Assembly: GCF_029428875.1 (NCBI RefSeq)
Contig: NZ_JAJSOO010000001.1
Coordinates: forward strand, 5,146,001 to 5,210,000
Source: Streptomyces sp. JH34
GTDB lineage: Bacteria > Actinomycetota > Actinomycetes > Streptomycetales > Streptomycetaceae
DNA: 64,000 nt
Direction of reading: 5' to 3'
Part shown: one piece after another, positions 48,540-51,507 of the stretch
Numbering within the stretch: position 1 is the stretch's first letter
Layout: the number at the start of each line of letters is the position of its first letter
Made by a program: the position numbers and the translations under genes
The notes under the pieces: model-generated
The model's input: only the letters and a program-made list of their open reading frames with translations
Told to the model about the DNA's origin: nothing
Database searches by the model: none

Positions 48540-48971
48540 ATGGACCGGCTGGACAGAGAGATCCTCGGCATCCTCCAGGAGGACGCCCGGATCTCGTACC
48601 GCGATCTGGGCGTGCGTGTCGGACTCAGTGCCAACGCGGCGGGCGACCGCGTGCGCCGTATGCGCCGCGACGGGGTGATCCGTGGCTTCACGGTCATCGT
48701 CGACCCCGCCGCCGACACCCGTTCGGGCCTCGTCGTCTTCATCGACGTGTCGTTGCGCCTCGACACGACGAACGAGGAGTTCGAGCGTTCGGTGCTGACC
48801 CTGCCCGGCATCACCGAGGTGGTGCACGTGACGGGCGGCCACGACTACCTCGTACGCGCCACGGCGGCCGATCCCGGCTCCCTGGACACACTGCTGCGGC
48901 GGCTGAAGAAGGACGCGGGCGTGGCCCACTCCACCACCCGGATCGCCCTCAGAGCGGCGCCTGCCAGATGA
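48540..48971 (+). CDS. Lrp/AsnC-family regulator
   Basis: 143 residues. The HTH is LDREILGILQEDARISYRDL followed by GVRVGLSANAAGDRVRRM; the RAM domain follows (VVFIDVSLRLDTTNEEFERS, EVVHVTGGHDYLVRA). Lrp proteins sense amino acids or related ligands as octamers. It is divergent from narK with a ~147-bp gap that holds both promoters. Its last 23 bases overlap the end of the GAF kinase gene on the opposite strand. Confidence 0.9.
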   Translation: MDRLDREILGILQEDARISYRDLGVRVGLSANAAGDRVRRMRRDGVIRGFTVIVDPAADTRSGLVVFIDVSLRLDTTNEEFERSVLTLPGITEVVHVTGGHDYLVRATAADPGSLDTLLRRLKKDAGVAHSTTRIALRAAPAR

Positions 48972-50451
48972 CCGTCGGCGACCGGCCGCCGTCCTCGGCG
49001 CGCCCGTCGTCCGCGACCACGAGCCGCACCGCCGCACGCCCGTCGGCCAGCCGTGCCGTCGCGTCCACCTCCACCTCGACGGCCGACACCCCCTCCCGCC
49101 GGTGCGCGCCGGCGAGTGCCCCGCGCAGCACGTCGAGCAGTTCGCCGTCCACCGGCTCCGTCACCAGGGCGTCCACCGCGCCGGTGAACTGCACCGACGG
49201 CTGGAACCCGAGCACCGCCGCCGCGCCGCCCGTCTCCCTGAGGACCCGGCCGCGGAAGGTCGTGGGTGCTTCGGCGGGTGGTTGCTGGAGCGCGAAGATC
49301 GTGGTCCTGACCTCCTGGATGGTGGAGTCCAGCTCGTCGACCGCGTGTCCGAGCAGCTCGGCGGTCTCCGTGTCCCCGGCCAGGTCCCTGCGACGGGTCG
49401 ACTCCAGCATCATCTCCGTCGCGAACAGCCGCTGTACGACGAGATCGTGCAGGTCGCGGGCGATGCGGTCGCGGTCCTCGTAGACCGCCAGCTGCTCCCT
49501 GTAGTGCTGCGCGTCGGCCATCACCAGGGCGAGCGCGGCCTGGGAGGCGAACTGCGAGGCGAGCAGCCGGTCCATCGCCGTGTACGGGGCGCCACCGCGT
49601 CGGCGGGGCAGCGCGAGCGTGCCGATGAGCCGGCCCCCGCTCTGCAGGGGCAGCATCATGCTGGGCCCGTAGCGGGACCGTACCGGGGTCGTCATCCGTT
49701 CGTCCGTCGCGGAGTCCTCGATGAAGACCTCCTCGCCGCCCAGCAGCTGGACGAGGACGGGGGAGCCCGGCTCGATGGCCGTACCCACGATGCCCGCCGG
49801 GTCGTCGAGGGTGGAGGCGGCGACGATCTCCATCCCGCCGTCCGGGGTCGGCAGGAGGATCACCCCGGCCGCGGCTCCCGCCAGCACCCTGGCCCGCTCG
49901 GCGACCGTCGTCAGGGCGTCCGTCGTACCCGCTCCGGTCAGCAGCGCCCTGGTGACGGCGGCCGCCCCCTCGATCCAGTGCTCCCGCTGCCTCGCCGCCT
50001 CGTACAGGTGGGCGCCTCCGATCGCCGCGGCCGCCTGGGAGGCCAGCAGCCGCAGCAGCGCCAGTTCGGTGTCGGTGAAGCGGCCCGGTTCGTCCGCGGT
50101 GAGACAGAGGCTGCCGAGCACCTCGGTGTGGACCCGGACGGGCGCGCCCAGGAAGGAGCGCGCGGAGAGAGGGGCCGGCACGTCGCGGCGGTGCGGTCCC
50201 GCCGTCAGATCGTCGACGCGGACGGCCTGCGCGTCGTCCACGAGCGCCCCGAGCGCCCCTGTACGCCCGTCCAGGAGCGGACCCGCGGCGCGGCGTTCGT
50301 CGTCGGACATGCCGGCGGTGAACAGGTCGGTGACCCTGCGGTCCTCACCGTGGAGGAGGGCCAGGGCGCCGTGGCGCGCCCCGGCCAGCGCCGTGGCGGT
50401 GTCCACGATGTGCTGGAGGGTGGTCTTCAGGTCGAGGCCCGTCCCCGCCAC
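48949..50451 (-). CDS. GAF-domain histidine kinase with degenerate ATPase domain
   Basis: 500 residues from GTG 50451 after GGAGAGG. Two GAF domains (residues ~5-150 and ~165-312) precede a HisKA_3 motif, EDRDRIARDLHDLVVQRLFA with phospho-acceptor His335, as in DevS/DosT kinases. The ATP-binding part is odd: the N-box position reads LRGALAGAHRREG with no conserved Asn, the D-box survives as VVADDGRAED, and the chain ends about 10 residues later without the G2 box. It may not autophosphorylate, and might act as a ligand sensor or be phosphorylated in trans. It follows mbl by 19 bp, one operon. Confidence 0.85.
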   Translation of the reverse strand: MAGTGLDLKTTLQHIVDTATALAGARHGALALLHGEDRRVTDLFTAGMSDDERRAAGPLLDGRTGALGALVDDAQAVRVDDLTAGPHRRDVPAPLSARSFLGAPVRVHTEVLGSLCLTADEPGRFTDTELALLRLLASQAAAAIGGAHLYEAARQREHWIEGAAAVTRALLTGAGTTDALTTVAERARVLAGAAAGVILLPTPDGGMEIVAASTLDDPAGIVGTAIEPGSPVLVQLLGGEEVFIEDSATDERMTTPVRSRYGPSMMLPLQSGGRLIGTLALPRRRGGAPYTAMDRLLASQFASQAALALVMADAQHYREQLAVYEDRDRIARDLHDLVVQRLFATEMMLESTRRRDLAGDTETAELLGHAVDELDSTIQEVRTTIFALQQPPAEAPTTFRGRVLRETGGAAAVLGFQPSVQFTGAVDALVTEPVDGELLDVLRGALAGAHRREGVSAVEVEVDATARLADGRAAVRLVVADDGRAEDGGRSPTVIWQAPL

Positions 50452-50469
50452 CGGTGACCTCTCCGGCTC

Positions 50470-51507
50470 TCAGCCCGCGAGAGGGGTGAGGACCAGCGGC
50501 TGGACCGTGCCGTCCAGCATCGCGCCCAGCCCCAGGACGGAACAGACGTCCGGCCGTTCGGCGATGTTCACCGGCACGCCCGTCGCTTCGCGCAGCATCT
50601 GGTCGAACCCCGGCAGCAGGGCGCTTCCACCGACCATCATGATTCCGGACTCCGCGATGTCAGCCACCAGGTCGGGCGGGCAGTCGCGCAGCACCTTGCC
50701 CAGCCCGTCGAGCACGGCGGTGAGCGGGGCGTGGATCGCCTGGCGTACGGCTGCGGTGTCGACCTGCACCGAACGGGCCAGGCCGGTGGCCACGTCACGC
50801 CCGTGGATCTCCGTCACCGCCGGACCGTTGAGCGTGAGGCCGTTGCCCCGGAGCGCCAGTTGCAGGGGGCGCACCGACTGGCTGGGCAGCATCAGCTGGT
50901 GGTGCTGGCGCAGGTGCTGGATCACCGCGTTGTCGATGGCCTCGCCGCCGATCGGGATGCGTACGGCGGTCACGATCGAGCCGAGCGAGAGCACGGCGAT
51001 CTGGGTGGTCGCCGCCCCGCACACCATGATCATGGTGGCGGTCGGCTGCTCGACCGGCAGTCCGCAGCCGAGGGCCGCCGCGATCAGGGTGTCGACCAGC
51101 TCCACCCGCCGGGCCCCGAGCCCCACGAGTGTCTCCACGGTCGCGCGCTGGGCCAGCGGATCGGCGTCGTGCGGGGTGCAGGCGGCGGCCCGCAGCCGGG
51201 GCTTGCGGCGCAGCTGGCGGCGGAGCTTCTCGCCGAGCAGGTGCCGCAGCATGCGCTGCGCCATGTCGATGTCGACGACGGTCCCGCCCGAGACCGGGCG
51301 GGCCACCCGGATGTAGGCGGGCGTACGGCCGGTCATCTGTTCGGCGAGCGCGCCGACCGCGATGAGCGAGCCGGTGCGCGTGTTCACGGCGGCGACACTG
51401 GGCTCGTCGACGACGAGACCCACTCCCTTGACGAACACGCGGGTCCTCGAGGCCCCGAGATCGACGGCGATGTGGCAACGGCGCAACTGTTCGAGACTGA
51501 CGGTCAC
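50470..51507 (-). CDS. mbl: MreB-like actin homologue (Mbl)
   Basis: 345 residues from GTG 51507, after GGGAGA. Actin-fold marks: phosphate-1 IAVDLGASRTRVFVKGVG, phosphate-2 MIMVCGAATTQIAVLSLG and adenosine motif IMMVGGSALLPGFDQMLREA. Length equals MreB. Streptomyces carries MreB plus Mbl-type paralogues; in S. coelicolor, Mbl (SCO2451) contributes to spore-wall synthesis, and this gene's surroundings resemble that locus. No mreC/mreD genes adjoin it, which separates it from the main mre operon. The kinase-like gene is its downstream partner. Confidence 0.9.
   Translation of the reverse strand: MTVSLEQLRRCHIAVDLGASRTRVFVKGVGLVVDEPSVAAVNTRTGSLIAVGALAEQMTGRTPAYIRVARPVSGGTVVDIDMAQRMLRHLLGEKLRRQLRRKPRLRAAACTPHDADPLAQRATVETLVGLGARRVELVDTLIAAALGCGLPVEQPTATMIMVCGAATTQIAVLSLGSIVTAVRIPIGGEAIDNAVIQHLRQHHQLMLPSQSVRPLQLALRGNGLTLNGPAVTEIHGRDVATGLARSVQVDTAAVRQAIHAPLTAVLDGLGKVLRDCPPDLVADIAESGIMMVGGSALLPGFDQMLREATGVPVNIAERPDVCSVLGLGAMLDGTVQPLVLTPLAG

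What the first reader, a model, noticed from the sequence alone, without database searches (positions are those of the whole stretch)
48949..51507. Mbl operon partner: a GAF kinase with acceptor His but eroded ATP-binding domain
Seen: DRDRIARDLHD with His335 intact, two GAF domains, but no N-box Asn and no G2 box; gene ends right after the D-box; start 19 bp behind mbl. Inference: a cytoskeleton-linked sensor that no longer phosphorylates itself, possibly acting as a ligand-driven scaffold or phosphorylated by a partner kinase.
Basis: partly seen in the sequence, partly recalled or inferred. Interest (0 to 1): 0.5.

Follow-up and report, generated by a model that had tools for sequence, protein, structure and literature searches.

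The report
Sensor kinase without its ATP site
Next to a gene for a spore-wall cytoskeleton protein, many Streptomyces bacteria keep a sensor 'kinase' that has lost the part needed to use ATP but has kept its phosphate-handling centre almost unchanged, so it probably tunes a sister kinase's signal instead of making its own.

Summary
Window 48949-50451 (-) encodes a 500-aa GAF-GAF-HisKA_3 protein (here T) 18 nt behind mbl. No HATPase domain is detectable, although His335 is intact. T is not truncated. The ATP lid and G2 loop are missing from inside, and the last beta-strand is kept. The remnant is predicted to fold, like the DosS or DesK ATPase domain.

The loss is ancestral. All 114 aligned mbl-linked Streptomyces orthologues lack the N-box Asn, and in all the lid/G2 stretch is missing or replaced. 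Yet 113/114 keep the His and 114/114 keep the adjacent DxxxQ phosphatase motif. None of 78 intact relatives is mbl-linked. The nearest is P, a cydCD-linked DevS/OsdK-like kinase.

T tracks P: 93 of 94 T-bearing genomes have P. The exception has the only His-to-Tyr change, and a near relative without P has only a remnant of T. A second kinase-dead clade, not linked to mbl, lost the same parts independently, again in genomes with P.

Best reading: a kinase-dead, phosphoryl-handling partner or brake of the P pathway, co-expressed with Mbl. The 'cannot self-phosphorylate' and 'partner kinase' ideas gain support; the 'scaffold' idea does not. Biochemistry is untested.

The parts
48949..50451 (-). 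T: kinase-dead GAF-GAF-HisKA_3 protein, 500 aa, GTG start
50020..50436 (-). GAF1 (residues 6-144), DosS/DosT haem-GAF fold; the haem-ligand His position is replaced here (APLSARSFLG against HPPMRTFLG in DosT and DosS)
   Evidence: that this His is the haem ligand is recalled
49525..49959 (-). GAF2 (residues 165-309); of the domains compared, the only one that varies less in T than in the intact paralogue
49276..49476 (-). DHp / HisKA_3 (residues 326-392)
49447..49449 (-). His335, phosphoacceptor position; 113 of 114 orthologues His, 1 Tyr
49432..49446 (-). D336-xxx-Q340 (DxxxQ phosphatase motif of HisKA_3); 114 of 114
   Evidence: motif from passages of PMC3510030
48952..49260 (-). CA remnant (residues 398-500): N-box helix and strands of the ATPase fold without lid and G2
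49084..49134 (-). former N-box helix (residues 440-456): Glu, Asn, His replaced
48979..49002 (-). short linker (residues 484-491) at the site of the loss; between D-box Gly and terminal Trp a median of 12 residues in T against 42 in intact kinases
48958..48975 (-). retained last strand of the CA sheet (TVIWQA, residues 493-498; W496 in 113 of 114)
50470..51507 (-). mbl, MreB/Mbl actin-like protein, 345 aa, upstream in the same direction
48540..48971 (+). convergent Lrp/AsnC regulator whose 3' end overlaps that of T by 23 nt (neighbour, not part of the system)

Best explanation
T is a duplicate of a DevS/OsdK-like cytoplasmic sensor kinase that became the second gene of the mbl operon in Streptomyces. 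Shown: its ATP site was removed by loss of the N-box Asn and His and of lid plus G2, while the rest of the CA fold, GAF2 and above all the H-box were kept by selection. Inferred: T cannot phosphorylate itself. It works as a dimeric DHp module that handles phosphoryl groups made by its intact paralogue P (the cydCD-linked kinase). The likeliest form is removal of phosphate from a shared NarL-type response regulator through D336/Q340, with His335 as an acceptor or phosphate sink, either as a T homodimer or as a T-P mixed dimer. GAF2 would gate this, and the CA remnant would dock the regulator or pack on the DHp. Co-expression with Mbl would place this brake at the stage when the spore wall is built.
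For: Of 203 non-identical homologue ORFs: 119 mbl-linked (114 alignable, all CA-degenerate; the other 5 are cut, split or broken), 78 intact and none of them mbl-linked, 6 others. H 113/114, D 114/114, Q 114/114, against N-box Asn 0/114 and His 0/114. The CA remnant is under purifying selection (dN/dS 0.19) and the H-box has dN 0 in the window clade. P is matched in 93 of 94 T genomes; the exception (G174) has His335Tyr, and its near relatives G030 (T remnant) and G157 (no T) also lack P. A second degenerate clade arose separately, keeps HDxxxQ in 7 of 7, and all 6 of its genomes in the 199-genome sample have P. Precedents seen in passages: DxxxQ is required for NarX phosphatase and resembles CheZ (PMC3510030); RetS pairs with GacS, siphons phosphate and dephosphorylates (PMC12189002); OsdR loses its phosphate label in the presence of OsdK (PMC5069765).
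Against: No biochemistry. P does not need T (31 of 199 genomes have P without mbl-linked T; 6 of these have the second clade), nor does Mbl. The H-box may be kept for folding or dimer packing alone. T in G174, which has no P, is not evolving unusually fast (dN/dS 0.22 against a median of 0.18; 23 of 85 comparable pairs are as high or higher). Distance correlations between T, P and Mbl show nothing beyond phylogeny. The T-P tie is by profile match, and a few P copies look split. No response regulator has been identified for P or T.
Confidence: 0.55

Rival explanations
1. T is a histidine phosphotransferase of the Spo0B/ChpT type: DHp plus a dead CA domain that passes phosphoryl groups between P, or a regulator phosphorylated by P, and another regulator, gated by GAF domains.
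For: Same anatomy (His-bearing DHp plus folded, ATP-less CA remnant by prediction); His itself kept 113/114; CA remnant under selection; Spo0B appears in the fold list of the remnant, weakly (rank 29, E 0.028). Function of Spo0B and ChpT is recalled.
Against: DxxxQ kept 114/114 points to dephosphorylation as much as to relay; no second receiver known; HisKA_3-type relays of this kind are not known to me.
Confidence: 0.18
2. One reading: T no longer does phosphoryl chemistry; it binds a ligand with its GAF domains and acts on Mbl/MreB or the spore-wall complex.
For: Same-strand order with mbl in 119 of 119 mbl-containing homologue loci; GAF2 is the one domain more conserved in T than in P.
Against: The H-box is almost invariant; T is missing from 15 of 20 mbl loci chosen for its apparent absence, so Mbl does not need it; it tracks P; the second kinase-dead clade is not linked to mbl.
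Confidence: 0.17
3. T still autophosphorylates weakly, or with another donor.
For: His, D-box and remnant CA fold remain.
Against: N-box Asn 0/114, lid and G2 lost or replaced in 114/114; no HATPase profile match.
Confidence: 0.04
4. A decaying duplicate or sequence artefact without function.
For: GAF1 and CA diverge about twice as much as in P; T is a remnant in G030 and carries a stop in G172.
Against: Open frame in 114 aligned orthologues, dN/dS 0.14-0.42 by domain in the window clade, almost invariant H-box.
Confidence: 0.03

Closest known systems
DevS/DosS-DosT of Mycobacterium and OsdK (SCO0203) / SCO3948 of Streptomyces (GAF-GAF-HisKA_3-HATPase kinases)
   Same: Domain order, GAF1 and GAF2 folds (DosT GAF Z 19.7, DevS GAF-B Z 16.9), H-box; CA remnant best matched by DosS CA in Foldseek, by Z tied with DesK (11.3 and 11.1). 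cydABCD is SCO3945-3947 (PMC6585502, passages) and SCO3948 is listed as an orphan kinase (PMC9739842, passages), so P is probably the SCO3948 type (inferred from gene order)
   Different: T lacks the ATP site, and the haem-ligand His position is replaced in the window protein
RetS (partner of GacS), Pseudomonas
   Same: Kinase-like protein that tunes another kinase, with siphoning and dephosphorylation (PMC12189002, passages)
   Different: RetS is a hybrid membrane protein with receiver domains (partly recalled); T has no receiver and has lost lid and G2
DivL, Caulobacter pseudo-kinase
   Same: Kinase module reused for regulation in development (PMC4211667, passages)
   Different: DivL lost the His and kept N, G1, F and G2 boxes; T is the mirror image: His kept, ATP site lost
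Spo0B and ChpT phosphotransferases (recalled)
   Same: DHp with His and a CA-like domain that does not use ATP
   Different: No GAF sensors; not HisKA_3; T has DxxxQ
NarX / CheZ DxxxQ phosphatases
   Same: DxxxQ motif kept in 114/114 (motif from passages of PMC3510030)
   Different: NarX keeps its kinase; CheZ is not kinase-derived (recalled)

Membership tests
HisKA_3 sensor histidine kinase (DevS/OsdK type) | GAF-GAF-HisKA_3 order with phosphoacceptor His | tested here: met
   His 113/114
HisKA_3 sensor histidine kinase (DevS/OsdK type) | HATPase_c domain with N-box, G1 and G2 | tested here: not met
   no profile match; N-box Asn 0/114; lid/G2 missing or replaced
HisKA_3 sensor histidine kinase (DevS/OsdK type) | haem-ligand His in GAF1 | tested here: not met
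   window: APLSARSFLG; His in 60 of 96 T rows with a residue there, 53 of 53 P rows. That this His is the haem ligand is recalled
HisKA_3 sensor histidine kinase (DevS/OsdK type) | ATP-dependent autophosphorylation | not testable with these tools
   needs purified protein
DxxxQ-type response-regulator phosphatase | Asp next to His and Gln five after the His | tested here: met
   114/114 each
DxxxQ-type response-regulator phosphatase | dephosphorylates a response regulator | not testable with these tools
   no regulator known
Spo0B/ChpT-like phosphotransferase | DHp with His plus a folded CA-like domain without ATP site | tested here: met
   (structure by prediction; definition recalled)
Spo0B/ChpT-like phosphotransferase | takes phosphate from a receiver and passes it on | not testable with these tools
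   needs assay
RetS-like partner of a kinase | occurs together with an intact partner kinase | tested here: met
   93 of 94; joint absence of T and P needs at least 3 changes on well-supported branches
RetS-like partner of a kinase | forms a mixed dimer with the kinase | not tested
   no complex prediction tool used
Mbl/MreB spore-wall complex component | encoded wherever mbl is | tested here: not met
   15 of 20 mbl loci fetched for lack of a known T show no T match
Mbl/MreB spore-wall complex component | binds Mbl or MreB | not testable with these tools
   two-hybrid or pull-down needed

The most novel reading that the evidence does not exclude
Within one genus, DevS-like kinases have twice been converted by the same surgery (N-box lost, lid and G2 cut out, H-box untouched) into GAF-gated, ATP-free phosphatase or phosphotransfer partners of their own intact parent kinase, and in one case the device was wired into the operon of the spore-wall actin Mbl, linking a respiration-associated signal (cyd operon) to spore-wall building.
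Probability: 0.35. Interest if true: 0.72.

Novelty: new variant of a known kind. Interest (0 to 1): 0.52.

Why it matters
Pseudo-histidine-kinases are known from a few cases (DivL, RetS). Here is a natural series of more than 100 orthologues in which the ATP site is gone and the phosphate centre is frozen, with a matching intact parent in nearly every genome and an independent repeat. It makes the question of what a DHp domain does without its kinase directly testable in a well-studied developing bacterium, and it gives the little-studied kinase of the cyd operon and the mbl operon a possible common pathway.

Tried and rejected
Local mutation or sequencing fault: rejected, the loss is in all 114 aligned mbl-linked orthologues. 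Truncation at the D-box: rejected, the terminal strand is kept. Orthologues with a whole HATPase next to mbl: none among the 119 mbl-linked ORFs nor among the 55 (80 of 549 relatives kept there, capped).

Coevolution by distance correlation of T with P or Mbl in 43 paired genomes: no signal beyond shared phylogeny. Relaxed selection on T after loss of P in G174: not seen. The one natural His-to-Tyr change in the one genome without P is a single case. The Fisher value for T against P is not corrected for phylogeny; in the mbl tree joint absence needs 6 changes as drawn and at least 3 on well-supported branches (a change may be a loss or a gain).

Rows dropped or counted with care. Left out of the alignment: 5 mbl-linked rows (L055 and L173 at contig ends, L156 with a stop, L171 split, L175 remnant), and L004, L107, L155. 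In 'degenerate' meant failing an intact-motif pattern, so cut rows fell there by default. In one search, T includes G116 and G163 (contig ends), G093 (split) and G183 and G195 (placed by match next to mbl, not read); the second clade includes G064 from a listing only. P was counted by match (E<=1e-125), not by reading each frame; G174's match was its own T and was removed; G143, G119 and G172 have P in two pieces. In one search L175 (T remnant) is labelled as having no T, and L251 (G311) as having P although its P copy carries a stop. Both trees used thinned rows (95 and 68).

Correction made on checking: the first count of cydC-like neighbours (82 of 83 loci) counted two genomes twice and did not test adjacency; recounted.

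The fold search of the whole model was filled by GAF domains, so the CA remnant was folded and searched alone. Literature: searches found no paper on this gene, as far as their listings and the passages read show; Heichlinger 2011 (PMC3067644) is not held. Promoter and terminator scan: nothing of use.
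Full report
WHAT IS THERE. The gene runs 50451-48949 on the minus strand (500 aa, GTG start), 18 nt after the mbl stop. Pfam gives two GAF domains and HisKA_3 and no HATPase model at E<=10. In the same genome 34 HisKA_3 stretches were found; comparing by eye with the HATPase_c matches (listed up to E 10, some below the family cut-off), 33 have one just downstream and this gene alone has none.

ANATOMY OF THE LOSS. The genome holds one close paralogue, P (53% identical, 569 aa, L002), with complete N-box, G1 and G2. Aligning the two families shows that T keeps everything up to the D-box, then lacks about 30 residues holding the lid, the G2 loop and the following helix, and then resumes with the last strand. 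Between D-box Gly and terminal Trp there is a median of 12 residues in 114 T (range 5-79) and 42 in 77 intact proteins (range 39-95); L044 (79 residues) and L164 (34) carry long linkers there. N-box Glu 4/114, Asn 0/114, His 0/114 against 77/77 each in intact ones; first G1 Gly 106/114, second 17/114. Profile comparison of the remnant with the P ATPase domain aligns 92 columns up to the D-box Gly at 99.9% probability. AlphaFold2 gives the whole protein mean pLDDT 83 and the remnant alone 92. Among solved structures the remnant is matched best by DosS CA in Foldseek (E 1.2e-4); by structural Z, DosS CA (11.3, rmsd 2.0, 94 aligned) and DesK (11.1, rmsd 2.5, 96 aligned) are tied.

WHAT IS KEPT. 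His335 113/114 (one Tyr), Asp336 114/114, Gln340 114/114, and the block DRDRIARDL unchanged in 114. In 43 genomes that hold both genes (903 pairs), divergence of T relative to P is 2.0 for GAF1, 1.84 for the CA remnant, 1.59 for DHp, 1.00 for the H-box and 0.84 for GAF2. So GAF1 and CA are relaxed, the H-box is frozen, and GAF2 is under somewhat more constraint than in the parent kinase. Counting dN/dS in 8 close relatives: GAF1 0.42, GAF2 0.23, DHp 0.14, H-box dN 0, CA remnant 0.19. The DosS-type haem His position holds His in 53 of 53 P rows with a residue there, in 60 of 96 T rows, and not in the window protein.

WHERE IT OCCURS. Among 203 non-identical homologous ORFs, 119 lie with mbl on the same strand and none of these shows the intact CA pattern; 78 intact ones are not with mbl; 6 others are distant homologues (L003, L004), a broken copy (L155), a contig end (L138) or members of the second clade (L157, L158). 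All 80 records but one are titled Streptomyces. Of 24 rows from other genera of the family that were held and tested, 24 fit the intact pattern. A maximum-likelihood tree made without the CA region puts the mbl-linked rows in one clade (support 100/99).

A SECOND, INDEPENDENT CASE. Seven further proteins (L157, L158, L282-L286), with no mbl in the fetched stretches, have lost the N-box and G2 as well and keep HDxxxQ in 7 of 7. The tree places them apart from T, inside the intact kinases (100/100). The same loss therefore happened at least twice.

DEPENDENCE ON THE PARENT KINASE. In 199 genomes of the genus: T with P 93, T without P 1, P without T 31, neither 74 (from; limits under Tried and rejected). 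The two loci lie 1.6 Mb apart in this genome, so one deletion is unlikely to remove both. The single T without P (G174) carries His335Tyr. It sits in a tight clade of the Mbl tree with G129 (both genes, His kept), G030 (T remnant, no P) and G157 (neither). All six genomes of the second clade in the sample have P. In 81 genomes with a P-type locus in hand, a cydC-like ABC gene (67-100% identical to that of the window's genome) lies on the same strand within 1.2 kb upstream of the P match in 79, at 1.4 kb in one (L276), and was not found in L268, where P lies 148 bases from a contig end. In S. coelicolor cydABCD is SCO3945-3947 (PMC6585502, passages), SCO3948 is listed as an orphan kinase (PMC9739842, passages) and is said to be the kinase most like OsdK (PMC5069765, passages); P is therefore probably the SCO3948 type (inference).

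HOW IT LIKELY WORKS. Shown: no ATP site, a remnant that folds (by prediction), a frozen phosphate centre, linkage to mbl, co-occurrence with P. Inferred: T acts on phosphate made by P. DxxxQ is required for phosphatase action in NarX and highly conserved in HisKA_3 kinases (PMC3510030, passages); that a DHp domain alone can be a phosphatase is recalled from EnvZ. RetS is a precedent for siphoning and removal in a mixed dimer (PMC12189002, passages). DivL is the mirror case, with His lost and ATP motifs kept (PMC4211667, passages). OsdR affects sporulation timing and spore germination (PMC5069765, passages), and MreB with Mbl organises spore-wall remodelling (PMC4255298, passages), so a brake made together with Mbl is plausible but not shown.

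AGAINST THIS READING. P and Mbl both do without T in many genomes; T in the P-less genome shows no fast evolution; distance correlations are uninformative; no regulator is known; invariance of the H-box could reflect packing. In G172 T carries a stop while P is still matched, though in two pieces, and in G161 T is absent and P present, so T can be lost where P remains. The mbl link rests on gene order only.

IN PRINT? No paper on this gene was found by searches of an open-licence library; one search found two papers that name SCO3948, each once. Most subscription papers, including the main Mbl paper, are not held there. Of the nine papers cited or consulted only passages were seen.

Noticed in passing
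L157, L158, L282-L286: A second clade of CA-less DevS-like proteins in Streptomyces, not with mbl; in L157, L282 and L286 it lies near what reads like an ABC-exporter frame (not profiled).
   Followed up: partly
   Followed up: no
48949-48971: The 3' ends of T (-) and a convergent Lrp/AsnC gene (+) overlap by 23 nt.
   Followed up: no
L044:3169-4863: In this orthologue the lid/G2 gap is filled by a long low-complexity linker (79 residues between D-box Gly and terminal Trp).
   Followed up: no
L150, L151, L152, L057, L170: In several orthologues the stretch from the H-box to the end is about 10 to nearly 100 residues longer than in most, apparently from insertions ahead of the CA remnant.
   Followed up: no
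L243 (G143:C24): The intact paralogue P is split into two frames in one genome that keeps T; frameshift or assembly fault not resolved. G119 and G172 look similar in the match table.
   Followed up: no
window 50430-50451: The window's T starts directly at GAF1, while many orthologues have an open frame some 30-50 residues longer upstream.
   Followed up: no
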